From Haliea sp. E1-2-M8 (GTDB lineage: Bacteria > Pseudomonadota > Gammaproteobacteria > Pseudomonadales > Halieaceae), in NCBI RefSeq assembly GCF_030649675.1, contig NZ_JAUTDR010000001.1, positions 186,001 to 250,000 of the forward strand: a DNA stretch of 64,000 nucleotides, given 5' to 3'. A program made the translations under genes and the position numbers. This document shows positions 52,121-56,859 of this stretch, piece after piece (the stretch's first letter is position 1; each line of letters opens with the position of its first letter). The notes under the pieces are model-generated. The model was given only the letters and a program-made list of their open reading frames with translations. It ran no database searches and was not told where the DNA came from.

Positions 52121-52516
52121 TCAACGTCCGCCCTTGACCAGACTGCGGAAGCGGTCGAGCAGAGTTTCGTGCTTGTAGTCGGTGAACTCCCCTGAGTCCA
52201 TGAACATGCCGTGTTCGCTGCAGGTCTCGTACCAGATGTGTTTCTGCTTGGGGTCGGAGGTCTTTTCCATGTCCTTGCCGCAGCGCGGGCAGGCGATGTC
52301 GGCCACCTTGTCCCATTGCTTGCCCTCGGTGGGGTTGCCGAGGTCGAGGGCATCGCCCATCCACCTGGCCTTCAGCTTGTCCGCTTCACCGGTGTCGAAC
52401 CAGAGGCCCATGCAGTTGCTGCAACGGTCGATGGTGACATCGCCGTAGGTGACTTCCTCCATGCCATGTCCGCACTTGGGGCATTTCAGGCTGTGTTGGT
52501 CTGGGTTGTATTCCAT
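52121..52516 (-). CDS. zf-TFIIB (double zinc-ribbon) protein
   Basis: 131 residues. First ribbon CPKCGHGMEEV...RCSNCMGLWFDTGEADKL (two CxxC pairs), second with CPRCGKDM, CSEHG and a FMDSGEFTD tail. Typical of small bacterial zf-TFIIB proteins; role unknown, probably metal or nucleic-acid related. Confidence 0.85.
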   Translation of the reverse strand: MEYNPDQHSLKCPKCGHGMEEVTYGDVTIDRCSNCMGLWFDTGEADKLKARWMGDALDLGNPTEGKQWDKVADIACPRCGKDMEKTSDPKQKHIWYETCSEHGMFMDSGEFTDYKHETLLDRFRSLVKGGR

Positions 52517-52748
52517 CGGTCGTCCCTGTCAGGTCAGTTTATTCTGTTCGTCACTGGTGCTCCCGCGGAGCAGTTAGAGGCGAGTCTAGCGCAGGGCTGC
52601 GAATTTGTCGTCCCCCCTGGTTACCCCCCTGGATTCGCAGCGGGCGCGGTCCGCATTCTGTCCGGACCGCAGTTGCCGCTGAGCGATACTACGGTTGGTG
52701 AAAAGCTGCTAAATTCCCCGGTTGAAGGTTTCTGCCGGGAACAACACG
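52517..52748. other. 232-base divergent gap with a 9-bp inverted repeat
   Basis: Between the zf-TFIIB gene and the cytochrome operon. Holds GCTGCGAAT (52606-52614) and ATTCGCAGC (52633-52641) 18 bases apart. No good promoter was located. Confidence 0.4.
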
Positions 52749-53381
52749 ATGCGTTTAGCTCTTCTACCCCTGCTGGTGCTGCTCGCCGCCACATCCGGTG
52801 CGGTCAGTGCGGCCCCCGACACCAGTGCCGCCGAACTCTACCAGCCCTGCGCTGCCTGCCACGGTGTCGCTGCCGGGGGCAATGCCGCGTTGCGGGCCCC
52901 GCGGCTGAACCATCTGCGGCCGGTATATATCCTGGCGCAGCTGGACAAGTTCCAGCGCGGCCTGCGGGGTGGTGACGGCGCCACCGAGGTGGCGCAGCAA
53001 ATGGCCGCGGGGGTCGCGATGCTGCCGCCGCGGGAACGCTGGCCGGACCTGGCCCTGTATATCAGCGAGCTGGCGGGCAGCCCGTCAGCGGCTACCCTGG
53101 CGCAGGGCGATCCGACCCTGGGCGGCGACTACTTCAATCAGTTCTGTGGTGCCTGTCACGGGCCCGCGGCCGGCGGCAACGTGGCACTCAGCGCGCCCGC
53201 CCTGGCGGGGGCAGACGACTGGTACCTGGCCGCGCAACTGCACGCGTTTCGCGAAGGCCGCCGCGGCCAGCACCGCGAGGATCGCGGCGGCAGGCAAATG
53301 CGCTCCATGGCGGCAGTGTTGCCCGGCGAACAGGCGATACTCGATGTCATTGCGTTCATTCGCAGCCAGCCAGAGGAGTAG
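52749..53381 (+). CDS. periplasmic dihaem c-type cytochrome (c4-like)
   Basis: 210 residues, ATG at 52749. Signal peptide to about 22 (VSAAPD). Two cytochrome c domains with CAACH (34-38) and CGACH (133-137), each followed by APxL-type loops (RAPRLNHL, SAPALAGA) and later methionines (M85/M91, M187) that could be the distal ligands. Likely the electron donor or acceptor of the dihaem peroxidase-like protein whose start codon lies inside the last codons of this gene. Duplicated domain arrangement like c4, shown by internal similarity. Confidence 0.88.
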   Translation: MRLALLPLLVLLAATSGAVSAAPDTSAAELYQPCAACHGVAAGGNAALRAPRLNHLRPVYILAQLDKFQRGLRGGDGATEVAQQMAAGVAMLPPRERWPDLALYISELAGSPSAATLAQGDPTLGGDYFNQFCGACHGPAAGGNVALSAPALAGADDWYLAAQLHAFREGRRGQHREDRGGRQMRSMAAVLPGEQAILDVIAFIRSQPEE

Positions 53382-54591
53382 GCGCTGTTGGCCGGCCTGT
53401 TGGCTGGTCGTCATTGTGTTCCTGGTGGGATGGGGGCCGGGCGCTGCCGCGGCTGACGGTTCGCCCGGGTTCAAGCTTAGCCAGACTTGCCCTCCGGGGT
53501 TCGAACTGACGCAGGGTGCCTGCAAGCTGCGCAGCCTCTACCAGCGCTATGGCTCGCTGCAGGGTGCCGGTGTCGGCGGTCTGAAAACCGGCCTGCCACC
53601 CTGGCGCGACGGCTTTAGCCCGCAGCAAATTGATCTCGGCCGCTACCTGTTTTTTGATCCACTGCTGTCCGCGGATCACACCCTGTCCTGTGCCAGCTGT
53701 CACCAGCCCGATCGCGGTTTCGCCGACGGCATGGGGCGCAGTGTCGGTACTGACGGCCAGTTGAGTACGCGCTCTGCGCCCAGCCTGTGGAACGTTGCAT
53801 TTCTGCAAAGCCTGTTCTGGGATGGCCGCGCCGGCAGCCTGGAACAGCAGATGCTGGAGCCTCTCTTTGGCGCTGCCGAAATGGCCAATTCAGCAACCAC
53901 CCTGTTGGCCAGCCTGCGCGCTTCCGCCGTTTATCGCCCTCTTTTTGCCCAGGCCTATCCCGAGCACTTCAGCCACCCCGGCGCCAGCATCCAGCTGGAC
54001 CAGCTATACACGGCCCTGGCCGCGTTCCAGGCTTCGCTGATCTCCCTCAACAGCCGTTACGACCAGTACGCCCACGGCTACAGCGATGCCCTCAACGCGC
54101 GCGAGCAGGCAGGGCTGAATGTGTTCCGCTCCTTTGTAGCCCGCTGTGCCGAGTGCCATACGCCGCCTTTGTTCAGCAATCAGCAGCTTGCGGTCATTGG
54201 CACGCCGGAGCCCGAAGGCATGCCATTCGACCCCGGCGCCGGGCCAGGCCTGGGCGAGCCCACTCTGCGCGGCGCCTTTCGCACTCCGGGCCTGCGCAAC
54301 ATCGCCCTGACCGCGCCCTATATGCACTCGGGCCGCTTTGCAACGCTGCGCGAGGCGGTGGCCTTCTACACCGGTGGCCGCGGCCATGCGGTACCCGCCG
54401 GTGAAGATCTCAGGATACACTGGCATATCTGGGAGCCGCGGTTAACGGATGAGGAACTGGACCAGCTGGTCGAATTCCTGCACACCTTGACCGATGAGAG
54501 CCTGAAGCCGGTTACCCCCGTGGCCGTGCCCTCGGGCTTGCCGCTGATGCACGGCCCCGCGACACCAATAACAACAGGGAACGCGCCATGA
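53344..54591 (+). CDS. MauG/cytochrome c peroxidase-family dihaem protein
   Basis: 415 residues from the ATG at 53344, which overlaps the previous gene by 38 bases and gives a signal peptide with RSRR before LVVIVFLVGW; the start is inferred. Haem motifs CASCH (116-120) and CAECH (268-272), GRYLFFDPLLSADHTLSCASCH, LWNVAFLQSLFWDGRAGSLEQQ and GLRNIALTAPYMHSGRFATLREAVAFY as in the family. It has an N-terminal Cys pair (Cys49, Cys60) of unknown use. MauG-type members modify partner proteins; CCP members detoxify peroxide. The Met in PYMHSG needs alignment to choose. Stop overlaps the next start (ATGA). Confidence 0.86.
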   Translation: MSLRSFAASQRSRRCWPACWLVVIVFLVGWGPGAAAADGSPGFKLSQTCPPGFELTQGACKLRSLYQRYGSLQGAGVGGLKTGLPPWRDGFSPQQIDLGRYLFFDPLLSADHTLSCASCHQPDRGFADGMGRSVGTDGQLSTRSAPSLWNVAFLQSLFWDGRAGSLEQQMLEPLFGAAEMANSATTLLASLRASAVYRPLFAQAYPEHFSHPGASIQLDQLYTALAAFQASLISLNSRYDQYAHGYSDALNAREQAGLNVFRSFVARCAECHTPPLFSNQQLAVIGTPEPEGMPFDPGAGPGLGEPTLRGAFRTPGLRNIALTAPYMHSGRFATLREAVAFYTGGRGHAVPAGEDLRIHWHIWEPRLTDEELDQLVEFLHTLTDESLKPVTPVAVPSGLPLMHGPATPITTGNAP

Positions 54592-56096
54592 AAAAAACCT
54601 TGGGTATTGCCATCGCCGCGGTGCTGCTGATCGCCGGCGGATTCTATGCCGGCCAGGCGCGCCAGCCACCGCCCACGGTGATCCAGGCGCCCGCGGCAGC
54701 CAAGGCGGCTTTTGTACCGGCGGATATTGCCCCGCCGGCCTCGGGGCCGGTGCGCACGCTGGCGACCCCGGTCAGCGGTGAACTGATCCTGGTGCGCGAC
54801 GGCGAGTCTATCCAGGCGGCAATCAGCGAGGCGGCCCCGGGCGCGGTGATCAGGGTGCTGCCCGGCACCTACCGGGAGACCGTCTACATCGACAAGGACA
54901 ATATCACTCTGTCCGGGGTGATCGAGCGCGGCGCCTATCCGGTGCTGGACGGTGAGGGTTTCCGCAACGATGCGGTCCTGTACTCGGGTAACGGCGTGAC
55001 CATTGAAAACCTGTACATCACCCGGTACAAGGGCAACGGCATCATGGGCCAGGCGGGCAACAACTACATCATCCGCAACAACATCGTTGTCGATACCGGC
55101 GTCTACGGGATCTTCCCCCAGCTGGGGAAGAACGGCATCGTTGCCCACAATGTCGTCTCCGGCATCGAGGATGCCGCGATCTACATCGGCATGTCGGACA
55201 ATGTCGATGTGGTATTCAACGAAGTGTTCGAGAGCGTGGCCGGCATTGAGATCGAAAACAGCCGCGGCGCACTGGTGGAAGGGAATTATGTCTACAACAA
55301 CACCGGCGGTATCCTCGCGTTCATCACTCCCGGCCTGCCGATCAAGACCTGCGGCGATGTGATCATCCGCAACAACTTCATTTCCGGGAACAACCACGAG
55401 AACTTTGCCATTCCCGGTTCGCTGGTATCGAATATTCCGCCCGGCACCGGGGTGCTGGTGATGGCCTGCGACGATGTGATGCTGGAGGGCAACATCATCA
55501 CCAACAACGATTCCGTCGGTATAACCTTCACCGATTTTTCCCTGGCCTCCAATGCCGCAGTGGATCCAGAATCGGACCCCTACCCGAACCGCCCGGTGAT
55601 CCTCAACAACATCATGCTCAACAACGGCGGCAACCCGGCACCGGTTGTGCGGGCAATTCTCGCAGCCATGCTGGAGACCCGGGGCCCGGATATTATCGAC
55701 ACGGTGGGCATGGACGACGGCTGTATCCTGAATCCGGAGCGCTTCCGCACTATCGGCCTTGGCCAGTACGGGGACTGCGCGTTCGATACCACCGCCAACG
55801 TTGCAACCTACACCTTGCCGGAACCGGTGCCGGCCCGGGACCTCGCCGACGCGGATACCGGGCGCCTGGTGTACTACGGCATCTGCGCCGGCTGCCATGC
55901 CTATAATTCCAGACTCATCGGCCCGCCGGTGCAGGTAGTGCAGGCGCTATATATGGATGATCCCGAGGGCATTGCGGCCTATATTGCTGACCCGGAACGC
56001 AAGCGGCCGGATTATCCGGAGATGCCACCGCAGGCGCACCTGGATGCGGCTACACGTCTTGCCGCCGCCGAGTTCATGTTGCAGCTGGAGAACTGA
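54588..56096 (+). CDS. right-handed beta-helix protein fused to a cytochrome c domain
   Basis: 502 residues. N-terminal membrane/signal segment (to about 22), proline/alanine linker to about 58, a parallel beta-helix (about 65-380) with repeated NN...I.NN turns (IIRNNIVVDT, VVFNEVFES, IEIENSRGALVEGNYVYNN, VILNNIMLNN), then a cytochrome c domain (about 415-502) with CAGCH at 433-437 and a Met in PEMPP (479). No lipobox. Resembles a known family of beta-helix proteins of unknown function that pair with haem or uncharacterised partners. Starts 4 bases inside the MauG-like gene, so the three genes form one operon. Confidence 0.85.
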   Translation: MKKTLGIAIAAVLLIAGGFYAGQARQPPPTVIQAPAAAKAAFVPADIAPPASGPVRTLATPVSGELILVRDGESIQAAISEAAPGAVIRVLPGTYRETVYIDKDNITLSGVIERGAYPVLDGEGFRNDAVLYSGNGVTIENLYITRYKGNGIMGQAGNNYIIRNNIVVDTGVYGIFPQLGKNGIVAHNVVSGIEDAAIYIGMSDNVDVVFNEVFESVAGIEIENSRGALVEGNYVYNNTGGILAFITPGLPIKTCGDVIIRNNFISGNNHENFAIPGSLVSNIPPGTGVLVMACDDVMLEGNIITNNDSVGITFTDFSLASNAAVDPESDPYPNRPVILNNIMLNNGGNPAPVVRAILAAMLETRGPDIIDTVGMDDGCILNPERFRTIGLGQYGDCAFDTTANVATYTLPEPVPARDLADADTGRLVYYGICAGCHAYNSRLIGPPVQVVQALYMDDPEGIAAYIADPERKRPDYPEMPPQAHLDAATRLAAAEFMLQLEN

Positions 56097-56105
56097 ATTG
56101 GAGCG

Positions 56106-56145
56106 AGTGCTCAAACCACCTGAATTATCAGTTGGTTTGAGCACT
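56106..56145. repeat. long hairpin (13-bp perfect stem)
   Basis: AGTGCTCAAACCA and TGGTTTGAGCACT (56106-56118, 56133-56145), with an inner CTGA/TCAG stem in the 14-base loop. Starts 10 bases after the stop of the beta-helix gene. No T-run follows. May be a transcript end structure or a REP-like element. Confidence 0.65.
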
Positions 56146-56259
56146 TGACCCTTGCGACAGATCAAAAAATAGACATTGCGCCTGCCGTTATTACGCCTAC
56201 ACTTAAGCTGCGGTACCCGTTCAACTACCAGAGTGATAACGACCATGTTGGAGAAAGAA

Positions 56260-56859
56260 ATGGCCCAGGCTGTGAAGATGGCAGAGCAGGCAAACAAGAA
56301 AGTCGTGCAGCTGCAGAAGCAGCTGTTGTCGGAAACAGAAAAGGCACATGCCAGGGTCAAGGCTGACCTGACCGCTGCCCGGAAAAAACATACTTCCGCC
56401 AACACGCGCCTGAAGAAAGCGCGCAATTCCTTTCGCGGCAAAGCCAACAGCGCCAGCCAGAAGCATATCGAAGACCTGGTAACGCAAGTGCAGGATCTGG
56501 CGGAGTCAGTCGCGAAGATCGCCAAGACTGCCTACAGCTCCTTCGAGAAGCTGCTGCCGATTCAGGCAGATCTGGCGCTGGAGTCCCGCAGGGCTGAAGC
56601 GGCGGACAAGGCGGCATCAATGGTCGAGAAGGCCGCTGATCGTCGCAGCAAGATCCAGCATTCAGCAGCCGGGAAAAAAGGGGCAGCGGTGACAAACGCA
56701 GCGGCCAAGAAATCGGCAGCCAAAAAGAAAACGGCAGCCAAGAAATCGGCAGCCAAAAAGAAAGCGGCCCCGAAGAAGAAAGCAGCTCCGAAGAAAAAGG
56801 CGGCGCCGAAAAAGGCAGCGGCGAAAAAGACCAAGGCCGCCCCGGCGAAATCCAGCTGA
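56260..56859 (+). CDS. histone-H1/AlgP-like lysine-alanine-rich protein
   Basis: 199 residues. N-terminal 150 residues are a coiled-coil (VKMAEQANKKVVQLQKQLLSETEKA...); the last 60 residues are nearly all Ala, Lys and Pro with AAKK and APKKK repeats. The architecture is that of AlgP/AlgR3 and H1-like proteins that bind DNA non-specifically. GGAG at 56250 sits 6 bases before ATG 56260; an earlier in-frame ATG at 56245 is possible. Confidence 0.82.
   Translation: MAQAVKMAEQANKKVVQLQKQLLSETEKAHARVKADLTAARKKHTSANTRLKKARNSFRGKANSASQKHIEDLVTQVQDLAESVAKIAKTAYSSFEKLLPIQADLALESRRAEAADKAASMVEKAADRRSKIQHSAAGKKGAAVTNAAAKKSAAKKKTAAKKSAAKKKAAPKKKAAPKKKAAPKKAAAKKTKAAPAKSS
56698..56850. repeat. Lys/Ala/Pro low-complexity repeat region
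   Basis: Imperfect repeats of GCAGCCAAGAAATCG and CCGAAGAAGAAAGC type in the AlgP-like gene; a place for copy-number slippage. Confidence 0.7.

What the first reader, a model, noticed from the sequence alone, without database searches (positions are those of the whole stretch)
52749..56096. Three-gene operon: dihaem cytochrome, MauG/CCP-like protein, beta-helix-cytochrome fusion
Seen: overlapping reading frames (38-base and 4-base overlaps), each product with a signal segment and CxxCH haem motifs (2, 2 and 1). Known: MauG-type dihaem proteins oxidise residues in partner proteins, CCP-type reduce peroxide; NosD-like beta-helix proteins help copper-site assembly. Inference: the cytochrome feeds a dihaem enzyme that acts on the beta-helix protein, or the beta-helix-cytochrome is an electron acceptor for a surface-polymer reaction. 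I do not know a described pathway with this set.
Basis: partly seen in the sequence, partly recalled or inferred. Interest (0 to 1): 0.75.

Follow-up and report, generated by a model that had tools for sequence, protein, structure and literature searches.

The report
Di-haem oxidase paired with beta-helix cytochrome
Three neighbouring genes in a marine bacterium encode a di-haem enzyme of the MauG/peroxidase superfamily, its near-constant partner (a coil-shaped protein fused to a cytochrome) and a small electron carrier; relatives in distant bacteria keep the set together, so it looks like a real but uncharacterised oxidation module.

Summary
In detail: three + strand genes (52749-53381, 53344-54591, 54588-56096), overlaps of 38 and 4 bases, CxxCH counts 2, 2, 1. 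They are P1 (cytochrome c4-like), P2 (CCP_MauG superfamily) and P3 (TIGR03805 beta-helix plus one-haem C-terminal domain). The set is conserved: of 140 genomes of the family, 91 have both P2 and P3, 2 only P2, 1 only P3, and 89 of 95 P2 places have P3 directly downstream. Named relatives occur in Halieaceae, Spongiibacteraceae, Exilibacterium, Bacteroidota and, with one gene inserted, Ruegeria pomeroyi DSS-3. P2 forms its own clade, has Tyr where classical peroxidases have the Met ligand, and a private H...H-W-H motif. P3 has no conserved tryptophan (none at all in this window), so MauG- or MbnH-type tryptophan chemistry on P3 is disfavoured. In 16 of 48 loci a TonB receptor lies next to the set. 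Best reading, unproven: P2 is a peroxide-driven oxidase dedicated to P3 or to a ligand P3 holds, with electrons moving through the P3 haem and P1. The main rival is a peroxidase with P1/P3 as donors. Substrate unknown. New variant of a known kind.

The parts
52749..53381 (+). P1: periplasmic di-haem cytochrome c of cytochrome c4 type, 210 aa
   Evidence: Pfam PF00034 two stretches; best solved relatives are cytochromes c4, 6q2u E 4.8e-12 and 1etp 1.8e-11; M85 and M184 invariant in 31 P1, taken as the Met ligands (inference)
53344..54591 (+). P2: di-haem enzyme of the CCP_MauG superfamily, separate clade, 415 aa
   Evidence: PF03150 172.4 bits; TIGR04039 223.7 bits (cut-off 362.85) and TIGR03791 179.3 (cut-off 443.85); own clade 100/100
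53689..53703 (+). P2 first CxxCH (residues 116-120), peroxidatic haem by homology
54145..54159 (+). P2 second CxxCH (residues 268-272), electron-transfer haem by homology
54367..54369 (+). P2 Tyr342, at the position of the Met ligand of classical bCCP
   Evidence: Met in 3 of 3 bCCP references, Tyr in the other 16 of 19 references; Y342 invariant in 31 P2
54385..54426 (+). P2 private motif H348 ... H359-W360-H361
   Evidence: invariant in 31 P2; W360 and H361 in 0 of 19 references, three of which (the bCCP) have a gap or end before this stretch; kept in the Ruegeria pomeroyi P2
54588..56096 (+). P3: parallel beta-helix protein with C-terminal one-haem cytochrome domain, 502 aa
   Evidence: TIGR03805 177.4 bits, above cut-off 141.5; AlphaFold2 model mean pLDDT 81.5, poor around the haem motif
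54810..55670 (+). P3 beta-helix region (residues 75-361)
   Evidence: 42 residues shared by 32 P3 and the 7 paralogs aligned (of 8 found), among them Y173, D195, Y199, E221, E223, N224, N238, T239, F245
55836..56093 (+). P3 one-haem cytochrome domain (about residues 417-502; CxxCH 433-437, Met479 as likely ligand)
   Evidence: C433, C436, H437, M479 invariant in 32 P3
56107..56144 (+). strong hairpin 10 bases after the P3 stop codon, possibly the end of the operon (function inferred; no T run)
   Evidence: fold of 56094-56165 -33.3 kcal/mol, z -6.8; single copy in the window; not called as a terminator by the scan

Best explanation
P1-P2-P3 is a periplasmic oxidation module. P2 is a peroxide-activated di-haem oxidase of the MauG/MbnH/BthA kind (tyrosine at the second haem) dedicated to one partner, P3. 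The P3 beta-helix presents a conserved face that holds a ligand (a small molecule or a metal); its attached haem, together with the P1 cytochrome, carries the electrons between this pair and the respiratory chain. P2 oxidises the bound ligand or a non-tryptophan residue of P3. In several lineages the ligand would be brought in by the neighbouring TonB receptor. Shown: gene set, conservation, haem motifs, P2 clade, P2-P3 linkage, TonB neighbours. Inferred: peroxide use, that P2 acts on P3, direction of electrons, the ligand and the face that holds it.
For: Near-obligate pairing of P2 with P3: of 140 family genomes 91 have both, 3 have one only, 46 neither; P3 directly downstream at 89 of 95 P2 places. 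Same set in distant bacteria: Bacteroidota and Ruegeria. P2 lacks the Met ligand of classical peroxidases and has Tyr, with Glu179 and Trp159 at the catalytic-Glu and inter-haem-Trp positions kept (the roles are recalled). P2 is its own clade with a private His-Trp-His motif kept in Ruegeria. The P3 haem motif is invariant in 32 of 32. TonB receptor next to the set in 16 of 48 loci and a regulator upstream in 12 of 48. Precedent: MbnH-MbnP gene pairs, the isolated pairs in Methylosinus lying near TonB transporters (PMC3621798, passages).
Against: No experiment links any of these proteins to a substrate. Linkage does not say that P2 modifies P3; P3 could only pass electrons. A profile of P2 matches a classical peroxidase slightly better than the MbnH chain (1iqc 195.6 bits, 1zzh 188.6, 6e1c 188.3). 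BthA has the same Tyr ligand yet converts H2O2 to water (PMC6405878, passages and section 6). P1 is missing in 4 of 48 loci and lies after P3 in one. Ruegeria P3 keeps 99 of 139 P3 invariants but not T239 and F245 of the proposed face. The window's own locus has no TonB receptor or regulator beside it. The P2 structure model was poor (mean pLDDT 54.7) and no complex was modelled.
Confidence: 0.42

Rival explanations
1. A periplasmic peroxidase system: P1 and the haem of P3 deliver electrons to P2, which reduces H2O2 to water; the beta-helix is a docking or anchoring scaffold.
For: P2 belongs to PF03150 and is the only member over the cut-off in this genome. The Glu and inter-haem Trp positions are kept. 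A P2 profile scores classical peroxidases as high as MbnH. P1 is c4-like. BthA is Tyr-ligated and still a peroxidase.
Against: A plain peroxidase needs no 300-residue beta-helix with many invariant residues, no near-constant partner and no TonB neighbour. P2 lacks the Met ligand, and a His at the position of the bCCP second ligand is not conserved.
Confidence: 0.3
2. P3 is itself a cytochrome-linked oxidoreductase whose beta-helix carries a protein-derived (tyrosine-based) cofactor made by P2; P1 is its electron acceptor.
For: The logic is that of MauG with its dehydrogenase. Y95 and Y100 are invariant in 32 P3 and kept in Ruegeria; Y100 is Ser or Met in the 7 paralogs aligned. The sister TIGR03805 proteins are fused to or adjacent to a di-haem cytochrome, and in L114 one lies beside a DUF7133 protein with a cytochrome domain.
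Against: No conserved Trp in P3. The tyrosines shared with the sister family (Y173, Y199) occur in a same-genus genome without a P2 of this type (G018; other CCP_MauG proteins in G018 were not searched for), so they do not seem to need P2. No beta-helix quinoprotein is known to me (recall).
Confidence: 0.15
3. A copper (or other metal) handling module: P3 works like NosD or MbnP, P2 oxidises the metal or its site.
For: Weak NosD similarity (PF05048 46 bits). TIGR04039 (MbnH) is the best-scoring NCBIfam model for P2, and 6e1c, named 'Di-heme enzyme' in the PDB listing and MbnH from recall, is the best phmmer hit. TonB neighbours. Met153, Met202 and Met292 invariant in 32 P3.
Against: NosD equivalog model 57.9 bits against cut-off 300. 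I recognised no nos, SCO or copper-chaperone gene among the recurrent neighbours, though most were named by eye and not searched. Copper binding of MbnP relatives rests on Trp/kynurenine (recall), absent here.
Confidence: 0.1

Closest known systems
MbnH-MbnP pair (TIGR04039 / TIGR04052)
   Same: di-haem CCP_MauG enzyme beside one constant periplasmic partner; isolated pairs in Methylosinus lie near TonB transporters (PMC3621798, passages); Tyr at the ligand position
   Different: P2 is under the TIGR04039 cut-off and in a separate clade; genome G265 holds both kinds; the partner is a beta-helix cytochrome, not MbnP, and lacks conserved Trp
MauG with methylamine dehydrogenase
   Same: superfamily, Tyr ligand, dedicated partner (the last two recalled for MauG; MauG itself was not in my alignment)
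   Different: 179.3 bits against cut-off 443.85; no conserved Trp target in P3
Bacterial di-haem cytochrome c peroxidase (bCCP)
   Same: superfamily, Glu and inter-haem Trp positions; profile scores up to 195.6 bits
   Different: Tyr instead of Met ligand; second His ligand not conserved; near-constant beta-helix partner
BthA of Burkholderia (PMC6405878)
   Same: Tyr-ligated di-haem enzyme, shown to be a peroxidase
   Different: weak sequence match (6nx0, which is BthA from recall; E 9.1e-26); the word beta-helix does not occur in the paper
TIGR03805 plus TIGR03806 (beta-helix with SO2930-family di-haem cytochrome)
   Same: same beta-helix subfamily domain tied to a c-type cytochrome, fused or adjacent; a paralog is in this genome
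   Different: the cytochrome part is a different, two-haem family; no CCP_MauG gene was seen beside the pairs looked at
Methanethiol oxidase operon mtoX-SCO1-mauG-like (PMC5739008)
   Same: a MauG-like gene kept beside one partner enzyme in marine bacteria (passages)
   Different: partner is a copper-dependent SBP56 protein; different locus in Ruegeria pomeroyi (SPOA0268-0272)

Membership tests
MauG (TIGR03791) | score over the curated cut-off 443.85 bits | tested here: not met
   179.3 bits; no genome of 398 drawn from the phylum passes it either
MauG (TIGR03791) | Tyr as distal ligand of the six-coordinate haem | tested here: met
   Y342 aligns with Tyr of 16 of 19 references and with Met of the 3 bCCP; true MauG was not in the alignment, only MauG-like proteins below the cut-off
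MauG (TIGR03791) | Trp pair to be cross-linked in a neighbouring partner | tested here: not met
   no conserved Trp in 32 P3; 0 Trp in the P3 of the window and of L035
MbnH (TIGR04039) | score over cut-off 362.85 bits | tested here: not met
   223.7 bits; 10 of 299 phylum genomes do pass it
MbnH (TIGR04039) | falls in the MbnH clade | tested here: not met
   MbnH 7 rows and cassette P2 31 rows are separate groups, each 100/100
MbnH (TIGR04039) | MbnP partner gene beside it | tested here: not met
   neither P1 nor P3 matches an MbnP model in the NCBIfam scan; other neighbours in the window were not scanned for it
classical bCCP | Met ligand on the electron-transfer haem | tested here: not met
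classical bCCP | His as second ligand of the peroxidatic haem in the resting enzyme | tested here: not met
   Thr136 in the window; position not conserved among P2, His in a few such as L036 and L037
classical bCCP | H2O2 reduction with a cytochrome donor | not testable with these tools
   needs enzyme assay
TIGR03805 beta_helix_1 | score over cut-off 141.5 bits | tested here: met
   177.4 bits
TIGR03805 beta_helix_1 | TIGR03806 cytochrome partner (usual, not defining) | tested here: not met
   P3 carries a one-haem domain with no TIGR03806 match
NosD (TIGR04247) | score over cut-off 300 bits | tested here: not met
   57.9 bits
cytochrome c4 (P1) | two class I haem domains, closest solved relatives are c4 | tested here: met
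   redox behaviour not tested

The most novel reading that the evidence does not exclude
P2 installs a new, non-tryptophan protein-derived cofactor (or oxidises a bound ligand) in a beta-helix scaffold, which then works as a cytochrome-linked oxidoreductase fed through a TonB receptor: a new type of di-haem-enzyme/partner system on a right-handed beta-helix.
Probability: 0.13. Interest if true: 0.85.

Novelty: new variant of a known kind. Interest (0 to 1): 0.5.

Why it matters
Di-haem MauG-type enzymes with a dedicated partner are few as far as I recall (MauG, MbnH/CorB, the MauG-like neighbours of methanethiol oxidase), and those studied revealed unusual protein chemistry. This set adds a partner of a quite different fold. 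It is conserved across Halieaceae, including one genus of mostly 2-3 Mb genomes (g21), and occurs in Bacteroidota and in Ruegeria pomeroyi DSS-3, a laboratory strain in which it can be tested. It also ties the unexplained TIGR03805 beta-helix family to c-type cytochromes in a second way.

Tried and rejected
Trp-derived cofactor or kynurenine in P3: rejected, no conserved Trp. P2 as true MauG, MbnH or bCCP: rejected by score, tree or ligand residues. P3 as NosD: rejected by cut-off. Polysaccharide enzyme from fold: Foldseek top hits are alginate and inulin enzymes at TM about 0.4, not specific, left open. Structure of P2: model too poor to search. Sigma-70 promoter scan: none found in 52400-56300. 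Literature: all 10 searches used; from titles and abstract starts, no listed paper appeared to describe this three-gene set. The Ruegeria old locus tags were guessed and may be wrong, so that empty result says little. Papers opened: PMC6405878 (passages and section 6), PMC3621798, PMC5739008 and PMC8756737 (passages; the last was irrelevant). All others were seen as listings only.

The 16 were chosen by me to widen the range, not drawn at random. For co-occurrence I counted P3 only at E <= 1e-80, a line set after seeing the gap to the 33-37% paralogs; this drops fragments such as those in G085 (right after its P2) and G036. Many of the 140 genomes are incomplete, so some of the 46 'neither' may be missing data. 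Of 8 beta-helix paralogs found, L116 was left out of the alignment (no cytochrome part); I did not test whether it keeps the 42 residues. L034 is not in the P2 alignments because its frame is interrupted; one search used a piece of it. The TonB and regulator counts rest on BLAST clusters; Pfam was run on L055, L046 and L072 (receptors) and L072, L048 and L046 (regulators) only. Three loci of the receptor cluster d4 (L040, L076, L081) have it farther away and are not counted. Loci L104-L109, L118 and L119 were fetched and not used in any conclusion.
Full report
Observation. Call the genes P1, P2, P3. The window lies in a 4.84 Mb genome; its nearest named relative found is an uncultured Haliea (P3 92% identical). 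A strong hairpin (56107-56144, z -6.8) follows P3 and may close the operon; it has no T run and the terminator scan did not call it.

What the proteins are. P1 is a cytochrome c4-like di-haem protein. P2 is a CCP_MauG protein (PF03150 172.4 bits) that fails the curated cut-offs of MbnH (223.7 against 362.85) and MauG (179.3 against 443.85). It is the only PF03150 protein over the cut-off in this genome. P3 passes the TIGR03805 cut-off (177.4 against 141.5) and carries a C-terminal one-haem domain. AlphaFold2 gives a right-handed beta-helix with good confidence in that part and low confidence around the haem motif; no solved chain matched P3 by sequence at E 0.01.

Is the set real? In 140 genomes of the family, P2 (E <= 1e-100) is in 93 and P3 (E <= 1e-80) in 92; 91 have both, G006 and G085 only P2, G129 only P3, and 46 have neither. 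Of 95 P2 places, 89 have P3 directly downstream on the same strand. G006 has its P2 at a contig end, and G085 has a P3 fragment right after P2. In the window's own genus only 2 of 8 genomes have the set, so it seems gained or lost as a unit. By tblastn, P2 and P3 lie together in all 31 named loci and in the 16 further loci fetched; P1 is found in 44 of the 48 loci including the window (missing in L034, L076, L082, L083; after P3 in L081). The named loci were found with P3 as query, so they say nothing about P3 without P2 beyond close relatives. Outside the family the set is rare: 3 of 299 genomes drawn from the phylum carry a P2 of this type (this one included), with a wide gap to the next match (2.4e-187 against 7.2e-74); 4 of 369 class genomes (this one included) carry P3 at E <= 1e-90. 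A plasmid search found the set in Ruegeria pomeroyi DSS-3 (alphaproteobacterium): divergent AraC regulator, P1 (38.5%), P2 (51.8%), a TPR gene, P3 (44.2%). Ruegeria keeps 110 of 127 P2 invariants and 99 of 139 P3 invariants.

P2 in detail. In an alignment with 19 references, P2 has Tyr342 where the three classical peroxidases have their Met ligand and the other 16 have Tyr; Glu179 and Trp159 are kept; the second His ligand of resting peroxidases is not conserved. Invariant H348 and H359-W360-H361 form a motif whose W360 and H361 are in none of the 19, the three bCCP having a gap or ending there, but are kept in Ruegeria. A tree of 50 sequences puts the 31 P2 on their own branch (100/100), as it does the 7 MbnH (100/100); the order of the groups is weak (65/85) and long branches were flagged. 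Profile scores do not single out one known family: with a single P2 sequence the best solved chain is 6e1c (MbnH from recall), with a P2 profile it is the peroxidase 1iqc (195.6 bits, against 188.3 for 6e1c). One genome, G265, holds both a P2 of this type and an MbnH over the cut-off. No protein over the MauG cut-off was found in 398 phylum genomes, so MauG itself is represented only by near relatives. The Tyr ligand does not settle function: BthA has it and is a peroxidase (PMC6405878; passages and section 6 read).

P3 in detail. Forty-two residues are invariant in 32 P3 and in the 7 paralogs aligned (of 8 found; L116 left out), among them Y173, D195, Y199, E221, E223, N224, N238, T239 and F245. 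Ruegeria P3 keeps these except T239 and F245. From the strand pattern I infer that Y199, E221, E223 and F245 point outward on one face; no coordinates were available to check this. Inferred outward or edge positions M153, Q155, Q178 and M202 are invariant in P3 but Lys, Lys/Glu/Asn, Val and Gln in the paralogs, as expected if the two subfamilies bind different ligands. The paralogs are fused to (L110) or adjacent to (L115) a TIGR03806 di-haem cytochrome, and on a Novosphingobium plasmid such a pair is flanked by TonB receptors. So TIGR03805 beta-helices are tied to c-type cytochromes in two ways. There is no conserved Trp in P3.

Neighbours. Next to the set (or separated only by the regulator) is a TonB-dependent receptor in 16 of 48 loci: cluster d4 in L055, L058, L059, L060, L063, L072, L073, L075, L079, L084, and cluster d16 in six Bacteroidota loci (Pfam checked on L055, L046 and L072). 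In L073 two short frames lie between. The arrangements differ (downstream, upstream, divergent), which argues for repeated association, though the loci are related and I ran no statistical test. A regulator is upstream on the same strand in 12 of 48: AraC type in 7, LytTR type in 5; in L077 an opposite-strand frame lies between. The window's locus has neither.

History. The P3 and P2 trees agree on the main groups (Bacteroidota; Spongiibacter/Exilibacterium) and place Ruegeria on a long branch. In the P2 tree the Bacteroidota join a gammaproteobacterial sequence with weak support (80/76); in the P3 tree the order of the groups is unresolved. Occurrence in three distant groups makes transfer of the set likely; its direction is uncertain.

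Mechanism. Established knowledge: MauG oxidises Trp pairs of its partner; MbnH turns Trp of MbnP into kynurenine (recalled; the latter is not in the passages read here). PMC3621798 (passages) describes MbnH-MbnP pairs conserved far beyond methanobactin producers, with isolated pairs in Methylosinus near TonB transporters; PMC5739008 (passages) describes MauG-like genes kept beside methanethiol oxidase. The P2-P3 pairing fits this one-enzyme-one-partner pattern, so I favour oxidation of P3 or of its ligand by P2 (0.42), with electron traffic through the P3 haem and P1. A peroxidase with P1/P3 as donors is the main rival (0.30). Peroxide use, direction of electrons, ligand and modification are inferred, none shown.

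Novelty. No single part is new as a family: P1, P3 and the P2 superfamily have names. From the listings of my ten searches (open-licence library only) no paper appeared to describe the P2 clade or its pairing with a cytochrome-fused beta-helix. I rate it a new variant of a known kind, interest 0.5.

Noticed in passing
L117:5231-8869 (own genome G000:C12), also L002: A second TIGR03805 beta-helix in the same genome, in one frame with a C-terminal part carrying CxxCH motifs; the frame as called probably starts too early (1212 aa), homologs are about 790-860 aa.
   Followed up: partly
L114:1879-7297: In a related genus the beta-helix gene and an adjacent two-CxxCH gene lie next to a 949-aa protein with DUF7133 and a cytochrome c domain, another possible redox partner of TIGR03805.
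   Followed up: partly
L125 (Novosphingobium sp. EMRT-2 plasmid pABRDHK22): The TIGR03805/SO2930 pair is flanked by TonB-dependent receptor genes, one of them apparently split by an IS5 transposase gene.
   Followed up: no
L034 (Kineobactrum sediminis): P1 has no tblastn match and the P2 frame is interrupted while the P3 frame is open; decay or assembly error.
   Followed up: no
L124:7856-8932: Ruegeria pomeroyi has a TPR gene inserted between P2 and P3.
   Followed up: partly
L078:8041-11998 and L044: An SDR, acyl-CoA dehydrogenase, CoA-transferase and hydratase-like gene string lies downstream of the set on the same strand in two loci (names from reading the sequences, no family search).
   Followed up: no
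own genus, genomes G017-G022: Six of eight genomes of the genus lack both P2 and P3 at the cut-offs used but keep a TIGR03805-like paralog; a natural contrast for finding the phenotype.
   Followed up: no
window 56107-56144: Near-perfect long hairpin without a T run after P3.
   Followed up: partly
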